Below, one piece after another: positions 17,676-62,850 of a stretch of DNA of 64,000 nucleotides. The DNA comes from Jaapia argillacea MUCL 33604. Its lineage: Eukaryota; Basidiomycota; Agaricomycetes; Jaapiales; Jaapiaceae. Under the pieces are notes generated by a model. That model did no database searches, was not told where the DNA came from, and saw only the letters and a program-made list of their open reading frames with translations. The stretch's first letter is position 1; every line of letters begins with the position of its first letter. The stretch lies in NCBI GenBank assembly GCA_000697665.1, contig KL197711.1:368545-432544 (forward strand), given 5' to 3'. The translations under genes were made by a program, and so were the position numbers.

Positions 17676-19218
17676 ATGTCCCCACATCGGATAGAGCCCT
17701 CGCCTTGGCCTACCCAAACACCGCAGCCCTCCACATCCACATCCGTTTCCACGCGTAAGCGTAGAAGGATTGGTGATCGTCCGGTCAAAGTTGCGAGACA
17801 GGATCAGATTGTAGCTGATCCTCAGGAAGTTGGTGAGTCCTTTGTTGCTGAGGATTGTGGTTTTCACGATGGCCGGAGGTCGCCCGAGTGCCGTAGACTT
17901 CGGGAGGTTCTTCATCCGACCGACATACCTATCCTCCCCTCCCTCTATGCGCTTGTCCCTTCATCCCACTTATACTCCCCCCCCGTATCTCAGCTCAAGC
18001 CAAAATCAATTGTGAATTTTTTTCTGGCAACGACGTCCTTTCGTGCTTTCCGGATAGCCAGACAGTCATCCCACAACACCAATGGGCCAACTTCGTCTGT
18101 ACGTAGACCCGTCTTGTTTTCATCGATGCACACCCTCAATGATCGTACAGGGAATAGCCGCGTTCCTTACTTCACTCAAACAAACTTAGTCGACGTCTTT
18201 CTTTTTCACGGCGATACTCAAGAACAAATATTTCATTGGCCTAATTATACTAATCCGACCGATCGCGCTGGATACGTGTCCGTTCAAGTTAACGACTCTT
18301 GGTGGGGAGATCGGGGTGTCAATTGGAATGGCCAGAATGTGTCCTTCACATATTTTTGGGTGATTACGCGGAGTGATGTCGGCCTGGATGGCTCGCAGAT
18401 ACCCCAGTCAACCTTTACAGCCGTCCGTAAGTTGTTCACGTATTGTTTGCCCAGATTAATCGCTTATCCTGCTTTCAGAAACAACATACGCAGACTCCGT
18501 TGCTTCGTCCATGTCAATAGCATCCGCATCGGCCGCCTCTGCATCCTCCGCGAGCGCACGTGCCTCGACGTCGAGACCACAAAGCTCGAGTGGGTCAGGG
18601 AGCATACAGTCAGGAGCTGGTGCTGGTGCGTTCCCGCACTGGGCCATCGCTGTCATCGTCGTTCTAGGCTTCCTCGCCATCGTTGCCTTTGGCATTCTTA
18701 CCTTCCTAATCATGCGTCGGATGCGGGATCGACGGAGAAATGTATCGCGAAGAGAGTCCGGCAGCTCCGAATCACCCATGATTGTAAATGATCCACCGAA
18801 TCAAGCACCATACACACCGTTGCTTGGGGATGGCGCCACGGCTATGGCAATGGCTGGTGCTGCCCGTCCCGCCTCTCTCCGAGCTCGACCCGCTTCGGTC
18901 GTCCAGCACGACGACGGTGCATCGATTATTTCCCGCGCACAATCCGCAGGCGAGTCGGCGCCATTCTCTGGCGCCGATGCTGCCATCATGGCCGACGCAT
19001 TCCGGAAAGCCTTACGAAAACCAGATTTCGCTGATCGGCCTTTCGAGGAGGGGGAGAGTCCTGATCACCCAGAAGATCAGCCACCACCCCGTACCGATTT
19101 GATTAATAGAGAATTGGCGGAGGAAGGCAGAGACATCAGAAGCGTGAGCTCATCGAGAGGAGTACGGGTCGAAACACTAAGCGATGCCGGTGATACAATA
19201 CAGGACAGTCCTCATTAA
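17676..19218 (+). CDS. Serine-rich single-pass membrane protein with conserved cytoplasmic tail
   Basis: A probable cell-surface protein. The ectodomain exons read KINCEFFSGNDVLSCFPDSQ, then QWANFV spliced to WNSRVPYFTQTNLVDVFLFH, NDSWWGDRGVNWNGQNVSFT and FWVITRSDVGLDG, with N-glycosylation sequons such as NVS. After an intron at about 18427-18479 (FTAV joined to QTTYADSVASS) comes a long Ser/Ala stalk. One membrane helix follows (WAIAVIVVLGFLAIVAFGIL, about 18634-18714), then a basic stop-transfer (MRRMRDRRR) and a cytoplasmic tail of about 170 residues. The tail holds AAIMADAFRKALRKPD and, near the end, SSSRGVRVETLS. Tail motifs and layout fit an Agaricomycete surface-protein family of unknown function. 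The true N-terminus is uncertain: the ATG at 17676 gives a charged leader, not a signal peptide. An intron from about 17832 to 17994 probably precedes the ectodomain, and a better signal-peptide exon was not found. Confidence 0.7.
18961..19029 (+). other. Conserved helical tail motif, single copy
   Basis: Encodes a 23-residue block whose core is AAIMADAFRKALRKPD, preceded by PFSG. It is predicted to form an amphipathic helix with a basic C-terminal half. The same peptide appears three times in tandem in the unrelated protein at 61239-62850. Confidence 0.75.
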
Positions 19219-31832: not shown

Positions 31833-34102
31833 CTAATCACCGCCACCAGCGTCCCCTGCGCTGCGAAAGATTACTTCGCAAGTGTCTTGAGACCGCGGCG
31901 TAACACGGCTGGAAGATCCGCCATACCCGCCCGAACTATAAGAAGGATATGTAGTCGTTCGGGCGGGAGGCGGTCGAGCGGGTGGCGGCGGGTTACGACG
32001 GGGTGAAGGAATGACCGGAGTATGTGGCAGCCTGAAGTGGTCCAGTATTCGAATTCGATCGCTCTCGTCGTCGTCGGAAAGTTGGCTTGGCCTTGGACTG
32101 GATGAATTCGAGTTCAGAACAGGTGCGGGACTCCCAGACCGTTCCCAGTTCAGGTGGTTCAGCAAACGGACGAGTTCGCTAGGAACGTCCATAGAAGGAA
32201 TTTGAGTCAATATGAACAACGGCCTGAACAGCGGCATGGACGGTGCGATCGCACTTATTGGAACATCTCCGCGCAAATTCAATACAGCCACTACGTGTTC
32301 CAGCATAGTACGCAATTTCTGAACGAGATCTTGTGGGGTAGAAAGTCGACCCATGGCTCGAGCTTTCGCAACGACGCAAACCGCCGTCCAGCTTGCAAAT
32401 AAAAACGCTTGTTGGGTGGTGGTTGATGTCGAGGGAGATGGCGTAATGCCCTCAGTGTAAATGTTGATGGCGAACGCAATAAGCCGGGTGGTATGTTCTG
32501 GAAACATCCCGGTGAACATACAATCCAACCGAATCGGAGAAAATCGTTTGAAACCTCACCTCGCTCTGCAAAGTAATGCTCGGAACCTGAACAGAAGTCA
32601 AAGAGTGACGATGATAGCCGACCAGGTAAACGGTTATCAAAGGTAGATAATCTTCCCGGGTTATCGAGGAGCTTGATCAAGACTTCGCTGTAATCACCTC
32701 GTAGGGAGATACTGAGATTCTTCATAGGTACATCTCCCAACGCCCTGAGGATGTGATGCAAGATGCAGAGGACATCGGAAATCTGCGGATCTAGGTGAGA
32801 ATGTGAAGTGATGGGTAGTGGTCCGTCGATGTATTTGTCCACGAAAGCGCTGAGGACGCTAAGCCAGAGTTTGAATTCCTTTTGAAGATGGACTTTGCCC
32901 TTGGCAGAAAGATAATCTTTCCACCCAGCTAATCTGTCATCATCGGGATTCTCGTCGACTCGCAACAACCGGACGAACTCCACATCATCCAGTTGCATGC
33001 TTCGAGCCATCAAGCGCAGCATGACATCGACCTGTAACCCGGTGTCGAGGTCGTCAAGACAAGAGGTGACTAACTGAATCCTCTCATCGTCGCTCGAGTC
33101 GTGCATCAATGAGACAAGAGCGTGATGATGCCATCTCCCCAAGTCCTTGGATCCAGGAATGTGAATATCCTCTTTTATCTTGTCGAAATCGCGCTTGGTC
33201 CATGAGTCGTGTAATGGACCGATGGGAGGTGGTTTGATCAGGGGATCATCCTCGACGAAGGCGTAAATCAGGACAAGATATCTGTAGATGGATCGAAGAA
33301 AGTTTGGGATCTGGACAAACATCCAGGCGAGGGGAGATTTGTACGGACAATCCTCGTAGAAAGCAGGAAGAATGGATGTTCCGATGATGAGTAGGATCGC
33401 CAGCACGACAACGCTTGTGATGATAGCGTAGATAGTATCATCCAGGGTAGAAAGCAGAATAAGTAATCCCGCGAAGAAGAGGACGAGGGACAGCTGCAAT
33501 AGTAAGGAAAGCGCTCGAACGAAGAGCAGTACTTTCCAGATGATGACTCCTCGGAAATGGCGCTCTCGGAGACAAACGCGTTCGCGTAAAGTCATACGGG
33601 CGCGGACTGGGTAGTGGCGAGTCCACTGTTTGATGAGGATGCCAAACAGAGCAGACGTGAGCGATAGGACGAGACTCATGAACCATAGCGCGTTGACACG
33701 GATCACAGTCTTCGGAGGTCCAGGGGAAGGTGCAAGCGATGGCGAGGATGGGGATGGTGTCTTGAGGTCCTTGTAGGTATCGACAAGAAACGCCGTGAGG
33801 ACAGCAGAGAAAAGACCCGCCTGCCATTCGCGTTGAGCAACATGAAACAAGAACATTCGGAAGAAACTCACAAAAACCAACAGAGTATCAATCTCATTTG
33901 TCCAACCAGCAATCATCTGTTCGTCCTCCTCTTTCAGGATTTGGTCAACCTTCTGCCACGAAGGTGAGAGACTACACTTCTCCCCAACATCGCATCCTTC
34001 GGTCTATTTTGGAAAGGGCTAGGTCAAACTCATCGGAAAGCGAGGAGGTCGAAAATCACTCACTTCGTCTTCGTCTTGTATGTACCGATTCTGGGATGGC
34101 AT
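31833..34102 (-). CDS. DUF6535-domain membrane protein
   Basis: A member of a family greatly expanded in Agaricomycetes, function unknown. The probable first exon is MPSQNRYIQDEDE (ATG 34102), spliced to KVDQILKEEDEQMIAGWTNE, which opens the DUF6535 domain. A second intron (about 33847-33900) joins IDTLLVF to AGLFSAVLTAFLVDTYKDL. Membrane segments follow: VNALWFMSLVLSLTSALFGI then LIKQWTRHY, a basic loop, and two strongly hydrophobic helices (about 33380-33500). A long soluble part of about 550 residues comes next, interrupted by an intron near 32500-32560 (HYFAER joined to EHTTRLIAFAINIYTEGI). The end is proline- and serine-rich with PSPRRNPPPPARPPP, finishing GDAGGGD, TAG at 31833-31835. 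The start exon is the least certain part. Confidence 0.8.
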
Positions 34103-37957: not shown

Positions 37958-38326
37958 GTCGAATATTCCAATTCCGGCTCCCACGCGCGCCTCTCGTACT
38001 GATGCTCCCTCCTCTGGACTTATAAACTCCTGCTAATGGACTGCCACTTGATCACTCCATTGAGGTGGGACTAATGGCCATGGAACACCGCCTTAAATAA
38101 AGGAAAGTTTGCTTGTCAATAGGCCGTTTCTGGAACAAGTGATAGCTCCTGCCTGGACCTTCGCTCAGCACGCAAACGCCGGGGAAGGTAAGCACAGCGT
38201 TCGTTGTCCGGTGGTGGATCGACTTGGAATCGCACCACCACCAGCGACTCGTACCCATAACGTCGATCACATACAGGTACTACTCCCATCCGTTATGCTT
38301 CGTCGAAACTCGCAAGCTGATATGCC
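37678..38326. other. Divergent intergenic region
   Basis: About 650 bases between Rossmann copy 2 and the caspase-like gene. The left 280 bases are duplicated promoter sequence; the rest is unique. No core motif was recognised. Confidence 0.5.
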
Positions 38327-40528
38327 ATGACTTTGAATCTCGAGGTTCCAAATAACAAAGGGATGATCCAACTCTGGGCTCTCATTGTCGGCGTCGGAAC
38401 GTACAGCACCCACTCCGATTGTGATCTCGTCGGGCCCACAAAAGATGTCGACAAGGTTCATAAATACCTACGAGAAAAGATGAACGTACCTTCCAGCAAT
38501 ATTCGCGTTTTGAAGGATGAGCAAGCCAATAGAGAGGAAATTATCTCCTCATTCTCTAGCCATCTCATCTCAAACGAGTTGATCAAATGGGGAGATGCAA
38601 TCCTATTCCATTTTTCGGGACATGGAAGTCGGGCAAAGGCACCCAAGAACTGGCCGGTCGTAGAGGAGGAACGCGATGCTGATGATGATGGAGGAGAGGA
38701 TGGCGATAGTGAGGCGCGAAGGATGTTGGAGATCATCCTGCCCCACGATGAAGGAGAACAAATTATCGGATCCGATCGCAAAGTATGCGGTATCCCAGAT
38801 CGCACATTAGGGGTATTGCTGAACAAGGCTGCAAGAGCTCACGGACACAACATCACCGTCGTCTTGGATTGTTGTCATAGCGGACACGGAACTCGACTGC
38901 CCAACGATGACCATGGGCTGGTCGACGGGGAGGAATATCGAATCCGCGGTATCGACCCATCCAAAGTAGCGCCACTCTGGGAGGGTGTTGATTACGCGAT
39001 CCTGAACGACAACGCTGAGGAGGCAGGGGACGGAGGATCCGGACGCATACACCCTTCAGATTTGCCTGCATCCCTCCGAACTGCCTTCACGGGGTCTTCA
39101 GCCAAATCCCATATTTTGATGGCTGCGTGTAGTCAGAAAGAGGAAGCATTGGACTGCAGGGGAGGAGGGCTGTTTACGACATACTGGTTGAAGGCCCTTT
39201 GCGACCCCGACCTTCATCCTCGTTCGTATGCCGAGATGATGAAGTACATCAAAGCGGCATTCGAACGCCTAGCTGCCAGAAACCCCGATACGAAGGTCAA
39301 AGATCAACATCCGAGGTGCGAAGGAACCTCCTGCGACCGTCTCGCATTTGAAGAGACTGCCGTCGACAAGCGCTTATTTACCGCGAGGGTGGTCGACAAT
39401 GGAGGTCTGTGCGCCATTGATGCAGGCGAGCTCCACGGGATTCGAAGTGATACGGTGTTCGAGCTGTTTGACCTGAAGAGTGGATCACAGGCACGTCGCG
39501 AGCTAGGATCTGCCACAGCCACTGAAGTGTTCCCCATCGCTTGCATTGCAAGACCACTGAACTCTTTGGAGGTCAGCCAGACCCACATATACGCCCTCGT
39601 TTCACGGTGGCCGTACTCCCTAAGGTTCGCAGTCAGGAACACACAAGCCAATTCCACGCTCGCACAGGGTCTCTATGGGTCTCTAGAGCGTCGAATCCAG
39701 ATGGAAGCAGATGGTGGGTCATACCATAAAGAGCGAGTGGAAGACGCAAACGAAGCGGACCTTGTGCTGGAAGTCGGCAACCGGGGAGTCAGCCTTCAGC
39801 GACGCGATCAGTATATGCGTGGCCTTGCCACCCGCATGCCTCTCGTCGAATCAAAATACGTAGATGAGTACTTTCCGGAGATCTTGGACGACTTTGCAAG
39901 ATTCAATTATTATCTGGGACATCACAATCCGGTAGAGCCTTTTGCTTCCCAAGTGCAGGTCGAGCTTCACCTATTAGAGGAAGATTCGGATTGCGATTTC
40001 TTTGGAGATAGTAAGCTGGTCGAGCCGATGAAGTTGGGGAAAGAGATCGTTTTCCAAAACCGTGAAGCAACAGTCGTTCACTCCACAAGTAACGGGTATG
40101 CCTTCGTCCTTCGCATGGACGGAGCAGCTCCAGCGCCACTTTATCCTCACCTCACCTATTTTGAACCCGGGACGTACCAGATCGAAAATTGGTATTCGCC
40201 ATTTGAAGTTGACAAACCAACGCTTCATCCGGGAACGTCTCTTCAAATCGGAGGTAGCCCGGAATCCGAAAGACCTTTCACATTCACCGTTCGGGAGTGC
40301 ATCAATGAAGACCTCGACACTGTGTTTATAAAAGTCTGGTTACTTAGCTCACCAACACAGATGGACTTTCTGGACCAAGATCCTGTGATCGGCTTTGACG
40401 AGTATGGACGCCAGATTGAAAGAAGGAGAGGCGAAAGGTCTGCATCTTCCGACGAGTGGAGCCCTTCGGAGAATCGAGGTGGTTGGGACAGCATCACGCT
40501 CAAAATTACTGTGATCGGTCGGAACTGA
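38327..40528 (+). CDS. Caspase-like (peptidase C14) protein with large unknown C-terminal region
   Basis: A single-exon 733-residue protein; the ATG at 38327 has good context (GCCATGA). The caspase p20 fold starts at once: IQLWALIVGVGTYSTHSDCD, PTKDVDKVHKYLREKM, then the histidine motif AILFHFSGHGS (His99) and the cysteine motif NITVVLDCCHSGHGTR (Cys183). Both catalytic residues are present. An acidic insert (EEERDADDDGGEDGDSEARR, about 113-132) separates them. A p10-like part follows (SHILMAACSQKEEALDCRGG, LFTTYWLKALCD). Residues about 345-733 match nothing I recognise. They contain FTARVVDNGGLCAIDAGELH, TLAQGLYGSLERRIQMEADG and a charged tail. DCCHSG is the metacaspase/caspase-like form; basic-residue specificity cannot be inferred. 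It lies tail-to-tail with a TPR-CHAT gene (179 bases between stops). Likely a regulated protease, perhaps in cell death. Confidence 0.88.
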   Translation: MTLNLEVPNNKGMIQLWALIVGVGTYSTHSDCDLVGPTKDVDKVHKYLREKMNVPSSNIRVLKDEQANREEIISSFSSHLISNELIKWGDAILFHFSGHGSRAKAPKNWPVVEEERDADDDGGEDGDSEARRMLEIILPHDEGEQIIGSDRKVCGIPDRTLGVLLNKAARAHGHNITVVLDCCHSGHGTRLPNDDHGLVDGEEYRIRGIDPSKVAPLWEGVDYAILNDNAEEAGDGGSGRIHPSDLPASLRTAFTGSSAKSHILMAACSQKEEALDCRGGGLFTTYWLKALCDPDLHPRSYAEMMKYIKAAFERLAARNPDTKVKDQHPRCEGTSCDRLAFEETAVDKRLFTARVVDNGGLCAIDAGELHGIRSDTVFELFDLKSGSQARRELGSATATEVFPIACIARPLNSLEVSQTHIYALVSRWPYSLRFAVRNTQANSTLAQGLYGSLERRIQMEADGGSYHKERVEDANEADLVLEVGNRGVSLQRRDQYMRGLATRMPLVESKYVDEYFPEILDDFARFNYYLGHHNPVEPFASQVQVELHLLEEDSDCDFFGDSKLVEPMKLGKEIVFQNREATVVHSTSNGYAFVLRMDGAAPAPLYPHLTYFEPGTYQIENWYSPFEVDKPTLHPGTSLQIGGSPESERPFTFTVRECINEDLDTVFIKVWLLSSPTQMDFLDQDPVIGFDEYGRQIERRRGERSASSDEWSPSENRGGWDSITLKITVIGRN

Positions 40529-40707: not shown

Positions 40708-43700
40708 CTAGATACCAATGTGAATGTACGTCGCCCACCGTTCTGGTGGGACTCCCCGCTCACGCAGCAGCTGAATAGCGGAGTCGAGAGCAAAGGGGAT
40801 AACATTCGGATCGAGTGTTTCCCCTTTGAAGAGCTCATCATAGATCATTTGCGCCACCAGAGGACCATCGTTATCCCACATCGACCTATCGAAAATGTTT
40901 CCCACATGAGTATACAACATCGGAATTGTACTGAGGCACATACCACATTGTGCCCACAACACTTTTAAAGCCACTGAAGAGCATTGTCGCTGCCAGATGT
41001 ACAGTTTGATCTGGCTGCAATTGGTCACCCTTCGCCGTCTCACAGGCACTCAGAAAGGAGAAGAACGGATGGCGCAGCTGCATCTTCATCATTTCCGATA
41101 CAGTTAGCTTCCCACCCTGCAGTAAGAAACCGCTTTCGAGAGGGTCCTTCAAGTCTTGTTGCCCATGGCAGGCAAGATGAAGGATCGATACGTCGAAATT
41201 CTCGAGTTGGTTAACAACAGTTTGCTTGCTCGGTCGCACGTATACCTGAGCCCGGTCGGCTTCACAGTCATTGAGCATGTCCCGGTTTGTATGACTTTGT
41301 ACAATGGTCGCAACTTGTGAGATCTCCGCCACCGCATTTTTGAGTTCCGGACGAACTCCGGGCTCTGCAACGAGCAGCAATCTTGCGTCTTGGCGCCGAA
41401 TGATCTTCATTGTTTTTCGGGCGGTAATCAAGGCTTCCAGGGTTGGAGAATATGACGAGACGACGTATTCAGAACAGTATTCCGGGTTCCCACTATCATA
41501 TATGCCGGCTGCATGGAGGGGGAGAAAGGTGAAGGGGCCAGTTGGGCACCACCAGAGTCGCGGTCGTTTCTTTCCACCAGAAGCCTGACAGGAGATAATT
41601 AGCAAATAGCTCACCGAAATCTTCCAAAGATTTAACTCCGCACCTGGATATTCAATCCACGTAAGACGGGCTTGACCACTCTACGCCATAATTCCTCCAG
41701 GAATAGCTTGGCCGTTGGCTTTCTCGGCCCAGCAGGCCGCTGTATTTCCGCCTCTGGCTCATCATCTTGAAGTCTCATTTTCAAGTCCTTCAGCCCGCGG
41801 CCCAGATTTTCCACTCCGTGTAAACTGAGGGTCGAGAGACATATGGTCTTGATCCCGTCAGTGGGGGTTATCGTGATTGCATGGCACATGTCTCTATTCC
41901 CAACAAGGACAACCACCGGCCCTTCTCCAGAAACCTGTTTAAGGTGGTCGAATGGCTGTTTGGTAAGGAAGCGGTCAAACCCTAGCTGTCGAGCTCGTTC
42001 AATGTGAGACTCCAGCTCGACATTCAGACGGCGCCTCCGAGCTGCGTCCTGCTCTCTATATTTTGCGGGGAGAGATGGGGAGCTGATGGAGTTATCCAAG
42101 GTATAGCTATCGAGTTCCAGTTGACGCCCCAAAGTCTTGATTTTCTTAGATAAATCCTCAGGGAGTTCATCGACTGGTGCTCGGAGACGAAGCGCTTGGC
42201 TCCAGAAAACGGCACGACCTTCTTCTATCATTTCAATGGCGGTCGACGCTTTGCCAAGAGCGATTGCGTGCATTGCACCGTCATTTGCTAAACGCTCCGA
42301 TCTTCTCAATGCCTTCAGCCGCGAACCAATGTTGAGCCCAAAATGTGCCACGCGAGGGAGCAGGCTAATGGACACATTATAAGCCTCAAGTAATGCAAGG
42401 TGCTCTTCGCTGTTGAAAGGGGCGATGCGTTCAGCTCGAGTGAACAGGTCAACTGCGGCAATTAAACGGAGTCGGGAACTTCTGGCATTATCGAGTATTG
42501 TTGCAAGAAATGATTCGATGGCCGGCCGAAAAGAACTCCGATCAGAGGACATCTCCACTTTCTTCAAAAGCAACCGTGTGGTAGTCTCCTGATAGGCTGA
42601 TCTGTCCGCTGAACCTTCTTTAGTCTGTTTCAGGACCTGGGACATCAAAATAAGAGCCTTTTCTAAATCTTCCTGGCTACCTGATTCCTCGGCGAAGTGG
42701 TGAAGTAGAATAGCTTTGTCGTGCAGATATGCTGGGCGGTCGAAGTGGTTATCGGGAAGGATCCGAAGGGCGTCATTCAGAATATCCGAGCTTCGCTTCA
42801 GATCTTCCGAATCATGAGATTGCTCGAAGCGCGCAAGATAGCTCGAGGAGAGCGTTTTGAGGCCCGCGGCACGGTCTGGATTCCCGTCAGAAAACGCTTC
42901 TTGAGCGCTTGTGAGTAGTTCAATGGCTCTGTCCAAGTTGGCGCTACTCAAGGAGGTGACGGGAAGAGCTAGATAAGTCGATGCCAAGTTGTGCAATGCC
43001 AGCACGCGTTCGGGATCTCCTTTCCGGTAGATCTGAATCGAACTCTCCCCGAGGTTAATGGCTTCTGTCATATTTTGGATCTCGCCTAGAAGTTGGTATC
43101 TCCCATGCAGAGCCGTGGCAAGATTATTCAATGCCCATGGTCGAAGTCGATGACCAAGCGGACACAGGTCCAGGGCCTCGCGGTAGAGGTTCAAACTATC
43201 CTCCTCGTCGTTCATAGACCCGTATTCGAAGGCCTTACTATGGAGAGCACCAGCAAGGTTGGCCAGTGAGAATGGCCGATCAGGGTGACCAGCGGGGCGA
43301 GTCGTTAGTACTTGGGTATGAAGTGCAATTGCACTTGTTAGGTCGTCCGACATTCCTAAGCGCACAAACCTATTCCATCGAGCAGTCGCCAGGCCAGAGA
43401 GGGTAGAAGAGTGGAGGTCGGTTCCGACAGTATGGATGGACAACGCATCATTGTAATGCTTAATGCTGTCCTCGAGGTCTTCCAGCATTCCGGCATGGTG
43501 ATAACGCTCAAAAAGTGCCGCCGCGACATTGTACAATAGCACTCCCTGATAGACACTCGATGCCTGAGGGTGAACGTCTGATTTCAACCCATAAATTTTC
43601 GTGTACTCCGCAACCGCCCTAAAGATATCTTCTTCTCCACCATACGTTTGGTACCGGATGAGATGTGCATGTGCTCGACGCTTGGAGAACGCAGTGCGTT

Positions 43701-45686
43701 GGCGAGAATTGTATGGAGCCAGCTCGATGGCTTTGTCGAGGAGTTTGATGCCTTCGTCTACGTCTATCCTCTGGCGAGAAATTTCGAAACGAGCAACCAA
43801 GAACCATCCAAGATGACCAAACGAAGGTGTGTAATCGAGGGACACGGCTTCCCGTTCAAGTGTGATTGCGGACTCGAGATCATCCTGGTCCTTTGATCTC
43901 CCATCGTAGCGGTCCCAAAGTGCCCTGGCATAACTACAAAGGCAGCTTGCACGGGAGCGGTGGCCTCCTTCACACAGATCTAATGCCTCCCTAGCGAGCC
44001 TAACACCTTCATCAATGTCATCATCATCCCTCGTCTCCTTCCACCTGCTGCACAAACTCTCACTGAGGTTGATGAGAACGCGAACTCGAACAGGATCCTT
44101 TGCCGACGACAAGGATAGAGCTTCCCGATACTCGGCAATGGCATTGGTGATGTCGTCCAATTGACCGAGTTGCTCATAACGCTGGAGCAAATCAGTGGCA
44201 TGGTCGTATAGCAATGGAACTCGATCTGGAGACGCCTTAGATCTGAGAAGTTCACTGCTTAATGTGACAGCCTCGTCGAGGTCGCTGACCTGGGCTGATC
44301 GCTGGGCGGCTTCAGCAACCGATTCGTGAAGTAGCCGTAGGACTGCGAAACGGGAGTGGTGGCCGACTGGGAAGTGCTCGAGAGCCGCCCTTCGCAGTTT
44401 TATGACTCGTCGTAAATCTTCGTTTTGCGGGGTTACAATATTGGTGAAGCGGAGCCAAAGTGAGGAGGCAAGGCCAAGGAGAAGGGAGTAGCTAGGTGAT
44501 TGTGATGGTGGGTAGCACTCCAGAGCTCTCTCGTAAATTGAAATGGCCTCCTGTAGGTCCCTTGCGGGCGGGGGTGAGTTACTCTTGGACTGTGTTTCGC
44601 TGTATCGGAGGTATAAGGAGTCTGCCAGGTTTGAAAGGGAATCGACGTGGTCTGGGTCGCCCTTGGGACGCAAACGAAGTGCTTCGCGGCGAAAATGGAT
44701 ACAATCGTCAAGATATGACAGCTGTGGCGATAGGGAATAAAGGTCGAAATTGGCGTTTCCGAGGCTATGGAGGGAAAGAACGCGCAATGGATCACCATCA
44801 GGTGCCATTCTGATAGTCTCTTTGAACCATTTCACAGCGTCCACCAGGTGCTCTTTGCGACCCGTCTTAAAGAACTGAGCAAGCCTGGCATCCGCCAAGC
44901 CGTAAACAGCTTGCGGCCGAATGGGGTCTGTCTCTGGACAAATTTTGACAGCCTGTACGCTCCACTCGATGGCGTTTGTCAGATCTTTTAAGTGGCCCAA
45001 CATCCCATAACGAATAATGTATAACGCCGCCAGGTTTGTCTGGCGTTGTAGACGGTCGGGATCATCGAGTGGGCTGCTGATCGCGGCGGTCTCGAAAGCC
45101 ATTAGACAGCAAGCGAGATCATCGAGATGTTTGGTTTGTGAGAAATGGTCGTAGAGATTTTCTCCAAGAATTTGTGCGATTATGTGAGCGTTCTGATCGC
45201 CTCGTGGTATAGATTGCAAGATTTGTTGAAAGTAGCTGATGTCAACGGGTGGCCCGGAATCAATCATGTCGCGGAGACGGTCTGGGCAGACTAATTCGCC
45301 ATCTCTCGAAAGTGAAACACGGATAGCTAGCATATACGCGCACGTTAGAACCTTGTCAATCCGATCGATTCTGCCGGTATATGCAGAGTGGACGCACCAT
45401 CGTCAGGAGGTAACCTTGCCTGGGATACGTTGCCTTCCCTTGTAGCTTGTGCGCTTGACGTAATACTGCCCTCGGCACAGGAGACTGGGTCTAATGTGAA
45501 TCATAGTAAGTAACGGGATCCATCCCAAATCAGTTGGGACACACCTGAGGGCTCTGACGCGCTCGACGAGATGGTCTCCTCCTCTTGCCTCTTGCCTTCG
45601 TTGCCCTCCGATCGTTGTCCATCAGTTGGTGGGGGCGTCTCATCCAGCGGAATGGAGACGGTGTGAATAAAGGTAGCTTTTTGCAT
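40708..45686 (-). CDS. TPR repeat protein with C-terminal CHAT protease domain
   Basis: About 1,580 residues in five exons. Exon 1 starts MQKATFIHTVSIPLDETPPP (ATG 45686), a Ser/Glu-rich leader. Exon 2 reads DPVSCAEGSITSSAQATREG to QARLPPDD. An intron (GTGCGT...CTAAC...TAG) joins it to AIRVSLSRDGELVCPDRLRD. The giant exon 3 carries some 20 TPR-like units of the tetratricopeptide/FxxR type (YGMLGHLKDLTNAIEW, SLHSLGNANFDLYSLSPQLS and so on), then a linker with EEGRAVFWSQALRLR. Exon 4 is the CHAT domain: RLWWCPTGPFTFLPLHAAG, the histidine motif LHLACHG and the cysteine motif FFSFLSACETAKGD, then VVGTMW spliced to SMWDNDGPLVAQ, ending WATYIHIGI, TAG at 40708-40710. CHAT is a caspase-clan protease, and both dyad residues are present. 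The TPRs probably sense a ligand or partner. The start at 45333 was rejected because it lies inside an intron. Confidence 0.9.
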
Positions 45687-55209: not shown

Positions 55210-57844
55210 ATGAAAATACCTACTAGCTCTGCTAACAATGTTCAATCCGACTCCCTTATTGCGTGAGTGCTTCCATCATCCAATCTCGTTTCTCATGTGG
55301 AATGAGCCCTATACAGCATCATGGGCTCCAAGGGCGCCGGCAAGTCCTCGGTGAGAAACCCCTCATTTTTTGTTTCACTGGACTTTGACTCAACTCCAAC
55401 CCGGGCCATAGTTTATCGATGTTGCCATGAAACATCTGGGCCACATTGACACCCTGAAAGCGGTGGCTCTCATAGAGTCTCCTGGCTGCAATGATTGCAG
55501 CGCCACTCGAGATGCCTCGCACTGGGACGCAGAGATATCGAAGATGGTCTTGCAACTCATGGATTGCAGCCTCTCTGGTATCATCTACCTCCACGATATC
55601 AGCCACCCCAAGATCCCCACACCCTCTCCGAAGATCTTGGCGGCGTTTCGCAAGTTATGTGCTTCCGGAGTCCCATGGGCGACAAACGTCGTCGTCGTCA
55701 CCACCTTTTGGGATAGGCTACCGGCCGGCGAGTTCAACAAGGGCTTGGCGAAAGAAGCCGAGCTCAAGAACGAAGACGGGTTCCTTCACGAACTCTTCGT
55801 AAATGGCGCCCGATTCCTTCGACACGCCCATCAGAGCGATCGGCTTCCTATCGAAAATACTTTGTTTTCCTCCCCTCCTTCCATCGTCCTCGAACTCTTA
55901 GCTTCCCCCCCAGCGTCATCCTCCTCGGCGAAGGATCCTCAAGGTATCGAAAGAATATACGTTTCAGAGGCAACTTTCGCCGCAGAGCTCGAGCGGTTGA
56001 AGACTCAGCATACCCTGGACCTACAACAACTGAAGGAGGAGATGACGACTCTTCGAGAGACTCTGAGGGTTGATCGTGATAATGCACAGGCCGAGGGTTT
56101 CCAAAAGCTGAAGGAAGAGACGGCTACACATCGGGAGACTTTGAGAGTGGAACGTGAAGAAGCAAGGGCGCAGGATTCCCAAACGCTGAAGGACGAGATG
56201 GTCACAATTCAGGAGAAGTTGAGAGCCGAAATGGATGAAGCAAAGGCCCAACATATGCAAGCTCTGAAGGAAGAGATGGCCACAGTTCGGGAGAAGTTGA
56301 GAAACGAAACGGATGAAGCAAAGACCCAGCGTATGCAAGCTCTGAAGGAAGAGATGTCCACAGTTCGGGAGAAGCTGAGAGACGATATGGATGAAGGAAA
56401 GGCTCAGGATATGCAAGCCCTGAAGGAAGAGATGGCTACAGTTCTGGAGAAGTTGAGAGACGAGATAAAAGCGGCAAACGCCCAGGACATGCAAGTATTG
56501 AAGGAAGAGATCGCTGCTCTTCGGGAGACTCCGACAGCTGAACGAGATGAAGCACAGGCCGAGCCGCGTGCATTCAAGAAGCTTCATGCTAAGAAAAATC
56601 CCCACGTATCGCTGAAAGCCACGGTGAAATCCTCTCCTAGTCCGACGTCAGTCAGCGAGAATCATGCTCCTCCGAGTCCTCGCGTACCATTCGCAGTTGT
56701 CTCCTGGGGTGATCGGCATTCTCGCGTCTATTTCCAGGACGAAGAGGGTTGGATACGGGAGGCTTGGTGCGAAGACGGGGAATGGAGCACCGAGGATGCC
56801 GGGTATGTTCGCGAAAAGTGTGAAGAAAGGATCTTTTGTGAGACTATTGTTAAGTTGAACACTCCTCTGGCTGCGGTGAGCTGGGATAATGGAAACGAGG
56901 TAAGCCTTATTATTAATTTCCTTCCCATATGACCATCAACCATCCTTGCGTTGCTTACTGATTGCCTACTTAGATTCGAGTTTACTATTTGTCCATCACA
57001 AACACCTTGAGAGAGTATCGTTGGTCTTCCAAATCAGGGTCTACGTGGTCCAGGAGCTGCTTGGACAGTGTGGGCGTCCGGGTTGAGGCGGATTCTGGAA
57101 TTGCCGCCATACACTCGCCTCACGACAACAAGATTCATCTTTATTGCCAGTTAGGTACATATCATCCAACCCCTGCTAATGTGCACACCTGATAAAATAT
57201 TGACTCGAACTTAGGTTGGGGTTCTCCTGTCATCGAGGAATTATGTCTGGATACAACACCATCAAAGGGATGTAAATTTCCGTGTCCTGACTGGACTCGG
57301 GGACATACACTTCCTATGGCATGCAAGGGTTCCAGTATAGCGGCTGTTTATTGGGGTGGAGACCAAAGCTGCATGCGCGTTTACTACCAAGATACCGAGT
57401 TGAACCTTCGTGAGCACTGTTGGGACCAGAGTATCGGATGGTATGCAGGTTGGTTATCCTTATCTTTATCTTCCAAGTGGAACCAGACGTCTGACCTCGT
57501 AGCGTCAATTTGCAGGCGCGTTCGATGTCGGGAAGGTTCTTGCAAGCACTTCAATCGTGGCTGTGGTGTGGGGCTGTGAAGAGGTTCCGCTCCGTGTCTA
57601 CTGGCAGGCGGAATCCATGCGTCTGTTTCGAAGCCAGTATGTAGTTGGATCAGGATGGGTCACCGTCTCTTTGGAAACGGGGGCCGAGGGTGGCAAGTGT
57701 CCCTTGCCATTGTCCGTGGTGAAAGGCAGCGAGACACGGATCTACTTTCAGCGAGGGGACGGCTCTTTGGTTGTAATGCGCTCGACTGATGGTGTTCAGT
57801 GGCGGAAGGATGCCATCGTGACAATGTCCCAGCGGTCGGCATGA
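55210..57844 (+). CDS. P-loop GTPase-like domain, coiled-coil repeats and AAL-type lectin propeller in one protein
   Basis: About 750 residues, six exons. Exon 1: MKIPTSSANNVQSDSLI (ATG 55210). Exon 2 (55317-55350) holds the P-loop IMGSKGAGKSS. Exon 3 continues FIDVAMKHLGHIDTLKAVAL, IESPGCND (G3-like), GIIYLHDISHPKIPTPSP, FRKLCASG and VVVVTTFWDRL (G4-like), a layout seen in fungal AIG1/septin-like GTPases. Next come seven 26-residue coiled-coil repeats (56021-56566; unit MQALKEEMATVREKLR plus ten), then a basic Ser/Pro linker. The C-terminal part has six repeats of the fucose-lectin (AAL) blade: AVVSWGDRHSRVYFQDEEGW, AAVSWDNGNE/IRVYYLS, IAAIHSPHDNKIHLYCQL, IAAVYWGGDQSCMRVYYQD, VAVVWGCEEVPLRVYWQ and LSVVKGSETRIYFQRGDGS. 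It ends VTMSQRSA, TGA at 57842-57844. No signal peptide is visible, so it is probably cytosolic. Confidence 0.85.
56021..56566 (+). repeat. Seven tandem 78-bp units encoding 26-residue coiled-coil repeats
   Basis: Units start at 56021, 56099, 56177, 56255, 56333, 56411 and 56489, an exact 78-base period. The middle three are the most alike (ATGCAAGCTCTGAAGGAAGA opening). The outer ones have diverged, as expected if the array grew by internal unit duplication. Confidence 0.85.
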
Positions 57845-61238: not shown

Positions 61239-62850
61239 TCAAGATGGGAGACCAGAGCACTCGAAATCGTGCCGCGTTTGTTCGTCAAGGTCATCGGAGG
61301 AAACAGACCATTTACGGGAGTGAAAGGGTGAGCTGGGTGAGCCGGGTGACGACAGCGACTCCACCCGAACACTTCTCCCAATGACATCAGGTAGGAAGGC
61401 TGCACCCGCGCTGAGCGTTTGACCACCACTGGGCGATTTTGGACTCTCCACTTCAGTCGCATCGAAATCCGACTTTCGCAAGACCTTCCGAAACGCTTCG
61501 GCTATCGCAGCGTCAGCACCTGAAAATGGAGGCTCCTCTTCATCGTCACTGGACGGTGTTGGACTCTCCGGTAAAGAGGCGACGTAATCGGGCTTTCGCA
61601 AGGCTTTCCGAAACGCTTCGGCCATAATCGCAGCGTCAGCACCTGAAAATGGACGTGCCTCCCCATCATCACTGCGCCATATTGGACTCTCCGCTAAAGG
61701 GGCGACGGAATCGGGCTTTCGCAAGGCTTTCCGAAACGCGTCGGCCATGGTCGCAGCGCCAGCACCTGAAAATGGACGCTCCTCTTTAGATGTCAAAGTA
61801 AATGTGCCTTGAAATCGGTGTGGCTCTCTAGAACCAAGGCCATACGTTTTCTCGGGGCGGTCCGCAACCACCATGACACTTCCCCGGGCTTGGGAGGTGG
61901 CTTGCGAAAGATCGATGGCATAAGAAAGCTCCAATTTATCCTCGGATCGCCACGCACGTTCGACGCGATACTTGACGGACATGTCTGGAGAAGCAAGTCG
62001 GAAGTCAGCTAAAAAGCAGCGGCAGTGAAAACGAAAACGAACCTGAGGCGTTGGTGACAGTGTCCGCAAGACTTGGGTGGAGAGAGGTCCAAAACAGTTT
62101 CCAAGCAAAGTCCGATGCCTCCATCTCCGCCCGCAAAGAGTACACCTCTTTCTTCGACGAAACGACATGGTGGAAGGCGGATTCGATCAAAACAGAGACC
62201 ATCTCTAACTCCTTCTTCGCCGACGCCACTGGCTCGCCATAAAGGCGCTTCAGGCCAGACAAATGACCCTCGTGGAGCCTTTGGGCGAATTGGGTGGGAT
62301 CCAAGCCATGGCTACCGCCTGCCACAATATCCTCCATTTCAACACGGAAGTACAAGAACTGTTTCTCGGCACAGGTAGCGAGATTGCTCCATATACACCC
62401 CGCAAACCACCAACAGTTGAAGGTGTAAACATTGTAGAACTTGGCGGTGCCCATGATGAGTTCGAGAAGTGCGGCCAAATACGAAAGCCGAACGACAGAG
62501 GGTGGAAAGCGCAGAGTGGCGAGGACTTGGTCGCCTTTCTTCACCAAGGTATCCGGTGATTGCGAAATGGTAACGGTATCTTTGCACTTGTCACGATAAT
62601 TTGGACCGACAAGTGACGCCCACGACCCTGCGTCCCGCTCAAGGCGCAAGGCAGCTCCGTCCAACCCAACGATGAGGTATTCGTGAGCGGGTCGACCTGG
62701 CGTCTTTCCCCATGCCATATGTAATATAGACATGCAATCAGCGCCGTCTGCCAATGCATCAGGCGACGTTGCCCAATTCACGAACTGCTTCACAGGGATT
62801 TGCCCCCGAATTTTCCGAGCAGAAGGAAGTTTGGAGATCGAGTTGTCCAT
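61239..62850 (-). CDS. Unknown protein: possible permuted papain-like core plus three-fold repeated tail
   Basis: About 515 residues in two exons. Exon 1 from ATG 62850 (MDNSISKLPSARKIRGQIPV) reads HMAWGKTPGRPAHEYLIVGL with a conserved-looking His56, VTISQSPDTLVKKGDQVLAT, then KFYNVYTFNCWWFAGCIWSN with Cys146 in front of a hydrophobic helix. The order His-then-Cys, with the Cys in an N-C-W-W-F-A helix start, recalls permuted NlpC/P60, LRAT and PPPDE folds; this is a structural guess. A helical region with EASDFAWKLFWTSLHPSLAD follows. An intron (about 61983-62042) joins VTNAS to DMSVKYRVERAWRSEDKLEL, a beta-rich segment. The tail then has three 41-residue repeats (61464-61775) and GRSVRVESLSSPG, TGA at 61239-61241. 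No signal or membrane segment is clear. The tail motifs recur in the membrane protein at 17676-19218. Confidence 0.75.
61464..61775 (-). repeat. Three tandem 123-bp units encoding the AFRKALRKPD motif
   Basis: Units begin at 61775, 61652 and 61529 on the minus strand, an exact 123-base (41-residue) period. Each opens PFSGA[DG]AA and continues A[ED]AFRK[AV]LRK. The third copy lacks one residue (AAIAEAF in place of AAIMAEAF). The linkers (AESPIWRSDDGE, ESPTPSSDDEEE) have diverged more than the motif. Confidence 0.88.

What the first reader, a model, noticed from the sequence alone, without database searches (positions are those of the whole stretch)
55210..57844. GTPase-like domain fused through a coiled coil to a six-bladed fucose-type lectin
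One reading frame joins a P-loop domain (GSKGAGKSS), seven 26-residue coiled-coil units and six lectin blades with the RVYYQD signature of AAL-type fucose lectins. No signal peptide is seen, so the lectin would face the cytosol or be released on lysis. An NTPase plus oligomerisation rod plus glycan reader looks like a sensor that assembles on ligand binding, comparable in logic to GIMAP, dynamin-like or NLR defence proteins. I do not know of a described system with this domain order.
Basis: partly seen in the sequence, partly recalled or inferred. Interest (0 to 1): 0.8.

Follow-up and report, generated by a model that had tools for sequence, protein, structure and literature searches.

The report
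Fungal lectin fused to degenerate GTPase
A fungal gene joins a damaged relative of immune-type GTPases, a long coiled coil and a fucose-lectin domain into one protein that probably stays inside the cell and may help it recognise foreign or damaged sugar-coated material; plants have a protein of similar design, so the idea is not new, but this fungal combination seems undescribed.

Summary
Six exons (55210-57844) give one 772-aa protein. Most of a P-loop domain, a rod of seven 26-residue units and the first blade of a six-bladed AAL-type lectin lie in a single open 496-codon exon, so the fusion does not rest on splicing. The N-terminal domain belongs to an expanded AIG1/GIMAP-like GTPase family of the same genome (22 other places found), shown by an own-family profile and shared introns. 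It is degenerate: G1 is intact, the switch I/G2 stretch is missing, G3 reads ESPG. Most relatives run on into a helix-like tail, some with a hydrophobic end; here a lectin stands there. The lectin is the only PF07938 place found in the genome and keeps the fucose-binding core at two (1 and 4) of six sites. Best reading: a cytosolic, multimeric glycan receptor or adaptor with a pseudo-GTPase head. Main rival: a stored anti-feeder lectin. The logic is described in plants (AtPP2-A3: AIG1 G domain plus Nictaba lectin), and AIG1-Hint fusions in Glomeromycotina; I found no fungal GTPase-lectin case in ten literature searches. Other fungi could not be searched; no expression or binding data. New variant of a known kind.

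The parts
55210..57844 (+). whole gene, ATG to stop, six exons, 772 aa
   Evidence: spliced translation in one frame, five GT-AG introns of 54-74 bp
55210..55262 (+). exon 1, MKIPTSSANNVQSDSLI plus two bases of the next codon; no clear hydrophobic leader
   Evidence: the exon end ATTGC|GT has a counterpart AT[TCA]GC|GT within 150 bases upstream of the modelled start in 18 of 22 paralogues
55317..55350 (+). exon 2, IMGSKGAGKSS: G1 P-loop (GSKGAGKSS at 55324-55350)
   Evidence: an intron right after the P-loop also in 21 of 22 paralogue models
55412..55894 (+). rest of AIG1/GIMAP-like G domain (about residues 30-190); switch I/G2 stretch missing; approximate end
   Evidence: own-family HMM E 7e-23 for the protein; alignment A1
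55475..55486 (+). G3 position, ESPG in place of D-x-P-G
   Evidence: 20 of 22 paralogue models have D-x-P-G here
55700..55714 (+). G4 position, TTFWD (family TTMWD and variants)
56024..56569 (+). seven 26-residue coiled-coil units (residues 234-415), a 78-bp tandem repeat
   Evidence: AF2 of exon 3 alone predicts one helix over residues 215-397, pLDDT 78-93 in its middle and lower at both ends
56570..56692 (+). linker rich in Ser/Pro (residues 416-456), approximate
   Evidence: sequence; low pLDDT; no in-frame Met after residue 389 up to blade 1
56693..56899 (+). lectin blade 1 and part of blade 2 (end of exon 3); Arg467, Glu479 of site 1
   Evidence: Foldseek of the exon-3 model places blade 1 on AAL 6gke, 36 columns, prob 0.94 but E 0.25
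56974..57154 (+). exon 4, lectin blades 2-3
57215..57448 (+). exon 5, lectin blades 3-4; Arg640, Glu652 of site 4
57516..57844 (+). exon 6, lectin blades 5-6, C-terminus MSQRSA, no hydrophobic tail

Best explanation
A cytosolic glycan-binding receptor or adaptor built from an AIG1/GIMAP-like GTPase. Shown by sequence: one open frame; a family-derived G domain with intact G1 but no switch I/G2 and an altered G3; a long predicted helix of tandem units; a six-bladed AAL-type lectin with the fucose-binding core kept at two sites; no clear hydrophobic leader or tail. Inferred: the helix is a coiled coil that multimerises the protein so that few sites per chain become a multivalent reader; the lectin binds fucosylated glycans that reach the cytosol only when a compartment or cell is breached or a foreign cell is present; the G domain no longer cycles GTP but serves as a docking surface, possibly pairing with intact, membrane-anchored paralogues and so bringing them to the glycan-marked target.
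For: Family membership of the G domain; four paralogues scanned are MMR_HSR1, two of them AIG1, by Pfam, and the family profile, which includes the window domain, finds EngA/Der, GIMAP, septin and Toc34 chains. 18 of 22 paralogue tails run 100 residues or more to the first stop and look mostly helical and charged by eye; of nine measured, four end in a stretch with a Kyte-Doolittle mean of 1.1 to 2.0; the lectin takes that place here. Lectin fold and two site cores; long helix. Precedents, passages only: AtPP2-A3 AIG1-lectin linked to nematode susceptibility (PMC10329053); het-B, where a C-terminal lectin fold sets recognition by an intracellular fungal incompatibility protein (PMC10890737); a fungal gene named Aig1 induced when genetically different isolates of Rhizophagus meet (PMC7490403), in a group with AIG1-Hint proteins (PMC8778642).
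Against: No expression, binding, localisation or interaction data. No second species, so conservation of the architecture is untested. Four of six sugar sites lack part of the core. The G domain sits on a long branch (1.96), which fits decay as well as a new role. The anchor idea is weak: five of nine measured tails have a mean of only 0.5 to 0.9, no clear excess over the window's own N-terminus (0.88), and anchoring was not tested. AtPP2-A3 overexpression raised, not lowered, susceptibility. AAL is better documented as an anti-feeder protein (PMC6272156, passages).
Confidence: 0.42

Rival explanations
1. A stored anti-predator chimerolectin: made without signal peptide, kept in the cytosol, eaten by a nematode, insect or mite, and binding fucosylated gut glycans; coil and G domain only add valence, stability or bulk.
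For: AAL is listed as active on nematodes, insects and amoebae, and fruiting-body lectins are described as cytosolic without signal sequence, stored for feeder defence (PMC6272156, passages); AFL of Aspergillus has no predicted signal peptide (PMC3858362, passages); this protein shows no clear leader; CCTX2 shows that large fungal chimerolectins exist (PMC13324453, passages).
Against: A G domain with intact P-loop has no obvious job in a gut; hololectins are described as small, highly soluble and stable, this protein is 772 aa with a rod of about 180 residues; only two site cores are kept.
Confidence: 0.28
2. A relic or private fusion: a decaying GTPase copy captured a lectin gene and the product has little or no role.
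For: Missing switch I/G2 and altered G3, long branch, incomplete lectin sites, a single such gene found in the genome; other members also decay (L010 lacks G2, L018 lacks G2 and G3, L020 has a stop).
Against: 772 codons open with five intact introns, P-loop intact, two site cores kept with their Arg, Glu and aromatic residues.
Confidence: 0.18
3. Two adjacent genes, GTPase and lectin, wrongly joined.
For: None found; RNA-seq was not available.
Against: Most of the G domain, the coil and blade 1 share one 496-codon exon without stop; no in-frame Met between residue 389, inside the coil, and blade 1.
Confidence: 0.03
4. A structural or trafficking protein: the lectin fold binds a protein rather than sugar, as suggested for the lectin fold of het-B BH1, and the coil acts as a tether.
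For: In het-B the lectin-fold domain determines specificity towards a PII-like protein (PMC10890737, passages); four of six sugar sites here lack part of the core.
Against: Two sites keep Arg, Glu, a stacking aromatic and flanking Trp residues.
Confidence: 0.09

Closest known systems
Arabidopsis AtPP2-A3 (AIG1-type G domain + Nictaba/PP2 lectin)
   Same: N-terminal AIG1-type G domain joined to a lectin; no signal peptide or transmembrane region in the Arabidopsis PP2-like proteins; linked to plant immunity (PMC10329053; PMC5485960; passages)
   Different: Plant; Nictaba instead of AAL propeller; no rod of tandem 26-residue units is mentioned in the passages read; state of its G motifs not compared here
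Aleuria aurantia lectin AAL (PF07938; 1ofz)
   Same: 97 identities in 283 aligned positions (34%), same six-blade motif, cores of sites 1 and 4 conserved
   Different: AAL is a lectin alone with five fucose sites; here two site cores and two added N-terminal parts
AIG1/GIMAP GTPases and the paralogous family of this genome
   Same: G1, G4 region, family descent, helix-like tail after the G domain, intron after the P-loop
   Different: Switch I/G2 absent, G3 altered, the family's next intron absent, lectin at the C-terminus
AIG1-Hint proteins of Glomeromycotina (Rhizophagus)
   Same: fungal AIG1 G domain carrying a further domain; a gene named Aig1 is induced when different isolates coexist (PMC7490403; PMC8778642; passages)
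   Different: Hint domain, no lectin
Podospora het-B BH (HET + lectin-fold protein)
   Same: fungal intracellular protein whose C-terminal lectin fold determines recognition (PMC10890737, passages)
   Different: HET domain, FB-lectin-like fold, no G domain
Fungal chimerolectins (MOA, LSL, CCTX2)
   Same: lectin fused to another domain, fungal defence (PMC6272156; PMC13324453; passages)
   Different: beta-trefoil lectins with protease, pore-forming or unknown effector domains
Rice GTPase/jacalin proteins
   Same: GTPase joined to a lectin (PMC5485960, passages)
   Different: jacalin domain; GTPase type not examined

Membership tests
AAL-type fungal fucose lectin (PF07938) | profile match over curated cut-off across the blades | tested here: met
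   107.3 bits against 25.3, residues 464-745, profile 14-274 of 299
AAL-type fungal fucose lectin (PF07938) | fucose sites with Arg, Glu, stacking Trp/Tyr and Trp | tested here: met
   core kept at sites 1 and 4 only; of the residues listed in PMC5726637 5 of 8 are identical at site 1 and 7 of 12 at site 4; site 2 keeps R527/E539 but no aligned stacking aromatic (4 of 10); site 3 lacks Arg; site 5 has Arg for Glu and Ser for the stacking Trp; blade 6 lacks Glu by eye; alignment around blade 3 is uncertain
AAL-type fungal fucose lectin (PF07938) | binds fucose | not testable with these tools
   needs a glycan array
AIG1/GIMAP-like GTPase | homology to the family | tested here: met
   own-family HMM E 7e-23; shared intron after the P-loop
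AIG1/GIMAP-like GTPase | Pfam AIG1 or MMR_HSR1 over cut-off for this protein itself | tested here: not met
   no GTPase family over cut-off; best P-loop match AAA_29 at 13.7 bits in the whole protein, 15.6 with the domain alone, against 27
AIG1/GIMAP-like GTPase | G1 GxxxxGK[ST] | tested here: met
   GSKGAGKS
AIG1/GIMAP-like GTPase | G2 Thr in switch I | tested here: not met
   stretch absent; 20 of 22 paralogue models have Thr
AIG1/GIMAP-like GTPase | G3 DxxG | tested here: not met
   ESPG; 20 of 22 paralogue models have D-x-P-G
AIG1/GIMAP-like GTPase | GTP binding and hydrolysis | not testable with these tools
   needs biochemistry
Fungal NLR / STAND NTPase | NACHT or NB-ARC domain | tested here: not met
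   no such Pfam match listed at E up to 1
Fungal NLR / STAND NTPase | C-terminal WD40, TPR or ANK repeats | tested here: not met
   no such match; the C-terminus is a lectin propeller
Fungal anti-feeder lectin | no signal peptide | tested here: inconclusive
   no clear hydrophobic leader by Kyte-Doolittle; no predictor run
Fungal anti-feeder lectin | toxicity to nematodes or insects | not testable with these tools
   needs feeding assay
AIG1 G domain + lectin fusion (AtPP2-A3 type) | same order, G domain then lectin | tested here: met
   order here; in the plant proteins such domains are said to lie in the N-terminal region (PMC10329053)
AIG1 G domain + lectin fusion (AtPP2-A3 type) | homologous lectin domain | not tested
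   sequences not compared here; that PP2 and AAL are different folds is recalled

The most novel reading that the evidence does not exclude
A fungal intracellular glycan receptor of GIMAP type: a pseudo-GTPase-lectin that reads fucose exposed in the cytosol and recruits intact membrane-anchored GIMAP-like paralogues to the marked membrane or intruder, a design reached independently in plants (AIG1-Nictaba) with another lectin fold.
Probability: 0.18. Interest if true: 0.75.

Novelty: new variant of a known kind. Interest (0 to 1): 0.45.

Why it matters
If the receptor reading is right, fungi and plants would both have joined an AIG1-type G domain to a cytosolic lectin, which suggests that glycan reading by GTPase-lectin chimeras is a recurring answer to intracellular surveillance. 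It would also give a handle on the role of AIG1-like families in fungi; in the papers searched I saw only expression and family-survey data on them (PMC7490403, PMC8778642; passages). The degenerate G domain makes a clear prediction: nucleotide binding at most, no hydrolysis, and partnership with active paralogues.

Tried and rejected
Considered and rejected: NLR/STAND membership (no NACHT/NB-ARC); two separate genes (one exon); the alternative donor eight bases upstream for intron 5 (breaks the frame); dynamin membership (Dynamin_N under its cut-off in four of four paralogues, and 13.6 bits against 27 in the window domain).

Led nowhere: the prokaryotic genome collection held no relative of the lectin (0 of 11 pattern matches confirmed). 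Phmmer of the G domain alone against the PDB gave four chance-level matches, E 1.3 and above. AlphaFold2 on exon 3 without an alignment gave a poor model (mean pLDDT 59.3, pTM 0.26); only the helix is confident, and its Foldseek search had no match at E 0.001 or better, so it says nothing about the G domain. The tree does not resolve where the window copy sits in the family. All ten literature searches brought no paper that, in what I saw, describes a fungal GTPase-AAL fusion. Of the fifteen papers opened I saw passages, and of one (PMC10481521) also two sections, never a whole paper; three of them (PMC3192844, PMC12881547, PMC4986451) had nothing on this fusion in the passages shown. The library lacks most subscription journals.

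Limits: other fungi could not be searched, so whether the fusion is shared is unknown. Own-genome searches score best candidates only, so 22 paralogue places is a lower bound and 'only lectin' means the only one found. Paralogue tails were read to the first stop without looking for further introns, and no coiled-coil predictor was run. The own-family HMM was built from all 22 paralogue rows, including odd ones (L018, L021). The AIG1 Pfam model also matched 12 of 14 control genomes (8 over cut-off), so it is not specific to immune-type GTPases.

Full report
Observation. The gene starts at ATG 55210 and ends at the stop 57842-57844 on the + strand. Exons are 55210-55262, 55317-55350, 55412-56899, 56974-57154, 57215-57448 and 57516-57844; the five introns are 54-74 bp with GT-AG ends. 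The product has 772 residues. Most of the P-loop domain, the rod and the first lectin blade lie in exon 3, open for 496 codons. There is no in-frame methionine between residue 389, inside the rod, and the first blade. The fusion of these parts therefore does not depend on predicted splicing, though transcripts were not available.

The lectin. PF07938 matches residues 464-745 with E 1.3e-30, 107.3 bits against a cut-off of 25.3. Aleuria aurantia lectin (1ofz) is the best solved relative, E 5.4e-25, with 97 identities in 283 aligned positions. I mapped the five fucose sites listed for AAL in PMC5726637 (passages) through that alignment. Site 1 keeps W461, R467, E479 and W550, with W542 for the stacking Tyr92 (5 of 8 listed residues identical). 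Site 4 keeps R640, E652, the stacking Y705 and W711 (7 of 12 identical; W632 stands for Ile173). Site 2 keeps W520, R527, E539 and W612 but no stacking aromatic is aligned (4 of 10). Site 3 lacks the Arg. Site 5 has R702 for the Glu and S753 for the stacking Trp. Blade 6, without a site in AAL, lacks the Glu by eye. The alignment around blade 3 is uncertain. In the own genome (43.7 Mb, 95 contigs) this is the only place found with a PF07938 match, and a search with the lectin protein found only this gene; both score best candidates only.

The N-terminal domain. Alone it reaches no Pfam cut-off. In the own genome its protein search gives 23 places at E up to 0.001, the gene itself and 22 others, 16 of the 22 on contig C28 between 154 and 332 kb. 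I modelled the 22 with a small spliced-alignment script. In 21 of 22 models an intron follows the P-loop and a second precedes the 'Y...L(A/S)G' stretch; the remaining model (L021) starts after the P-loop, though a P-loop exon is visible in that locus. The window gene shares the intron after the P-loop and lacks the second. Its exon-1 end, ATTGC|GT, has a counterpart AT[TCA]GC|GT upstream of the modelled start in 18 of 22, so the intron before the P-loop is probably shared too. An HMM of the 22 rows scores the window protein at E 7e-23; the best of 200 shuffles had 2.2. Four paralogues were scanned with Pfam: four exceed the MMR_HSR1 cut-off and two exceed AIG1's. A profile of 10 paralogues plus the window domain finds EngA/Der first, then GIMAP7, GIMAP4, septins and Toc34 among solved chains. 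So the domain descends from an AIG1/GIMAP-like GTPase family.

Degeneration. G1 is intact (GSKGAGKS). The stretch with switch I and the G2 Thr is absent; intron 2 has only 61 bp. G3 reads ESPG. The G4 region reads TTFWD. Among the 22 paralogue models 19 show GxxGxGK[ST] in the script output (L024 and L021 have it by eye; L025 has Arg for Lys), 20 have the G2 Thr (not L010, L018) and 20 have D-x-P-G (not L018, L024). Loss of the G2 Thr and the G3 Asp normally abolishes a GTP switch (general knowledge), so I call the domain a pseudo-GTPase; this is inference. On a tree of the 23 rows the window copy has a branch of 1.96, shorter than those of L018 and L015, and its place is unresolved.

The rod. 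Seven 26-residue units, residues 234-415, mean pairwise identity 55%, arise from a 78-bp tandem repeat. The hydrophobic periodicity peaks at 3.70 residues, close to 26/7. AlphaFold2 on exon 3 alone predicts one helix over residues 215-397; the rest of the model is poor.

Domain swap. Paralogue tails were read to the first stop; 18 of 22 have 100 residues or more and look mostly charged and helical by eye. Nine were measured for hydrophobicity near the C-terminus: 2.0 in L006, 1.8 in L009, 1.4 in L008, 1.1 in L011, and 0.5 to 0.9 in the other five; the window's own N-terminal maximum is 0.88 and its C-terminal one 0.10. So a membrane anchor is plausible for a few members only. The simplest anatomy is that the lectin sits where the family has its C-terminal tail. 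Further AIG1-type places lie on C7, C3 and elsewhere (21 places, 17 over cut-off; 15 of the 21 read).

Mechanism. I favour a cytosolic, coil-multimerised fucose reader with a pseudo-GTPase docking head (0.42). Two site cores and the rod suggest avidity from multimers. Precedents, seen as passages: AtPP2-A3 in Arabidopsis, whose changed expression alters nematode susceptibility, overexpression raising it (PMC10329053); het-B in Podospora, where a lectin fold sets recognition specificity (PMC10890737); and AIG1 genes of Rhizophagus, of which one is induced when different isolates coexist (PMC7490403; PMC8778642). The strongest rival is a stored anti-feeder chimerolectin (0.28), since AAL is documented in that role (PMC6272156). 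A relic (0.18) cannot be excluded without orthologues.

Novelty. AIG1-lectin fusions are known in plants, and GTPase/jacalin in rice (PMC5485960, passages). Fungal lectin surveys (PMC8227253, PMC10481521; passages and two sections) and a chimerolectin review (PMC12355970, passages) mention no such fungal protein in the parts seen. I file it as a new variant of a known kind.

Noticed in passing
38321-40528 +: 735-aa open frame with a caspase-like Peptidase_C14 domain (PF00656, E 7.6e-13), about 15 kb from the lectin gene.
   Followed up: partly
40886-45402 -: TPR repeats (41632-45402) followed by a CHAT domain (40886-41680, PF12770 E 1.3e-26), apparently one TPR-CHAT gene with an intron, beside the caspase-like gene.
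   Followed up: partly
32291-34003 -: DUF6535 protein (PF20153, E 2.1e-40).
   Followed up: no
61466-61784: 123-bp tandem repeat, 2.6 copies, inside open frame 61239-62186 -; its PFSGADAAIMA-AFRKALRKPD unit also appears once in frame 18460-19218 +.
   Followed up: no
56024-56569: The repeat unit is 26 residues, not a whole number of heptads; a hydrophobic period of 3.70 would fit a nearly straight or right-handed coil.
   Followed up: partly
L004-L025 (contig C28 154-332 kb and others): Cluster of AIG1-like GTPases; one member (L020) has an in-frame stop, L018 is degenerate at G2 and G3, L010 lacks G2.
   Followed up: partly
L060-L066: Further AIG1-type genes on contigs C7, C3, C18 and C20; two of the 15 read have long Ser/Pro-rich C-terminal extensions of unknown role.
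   Followed up: no
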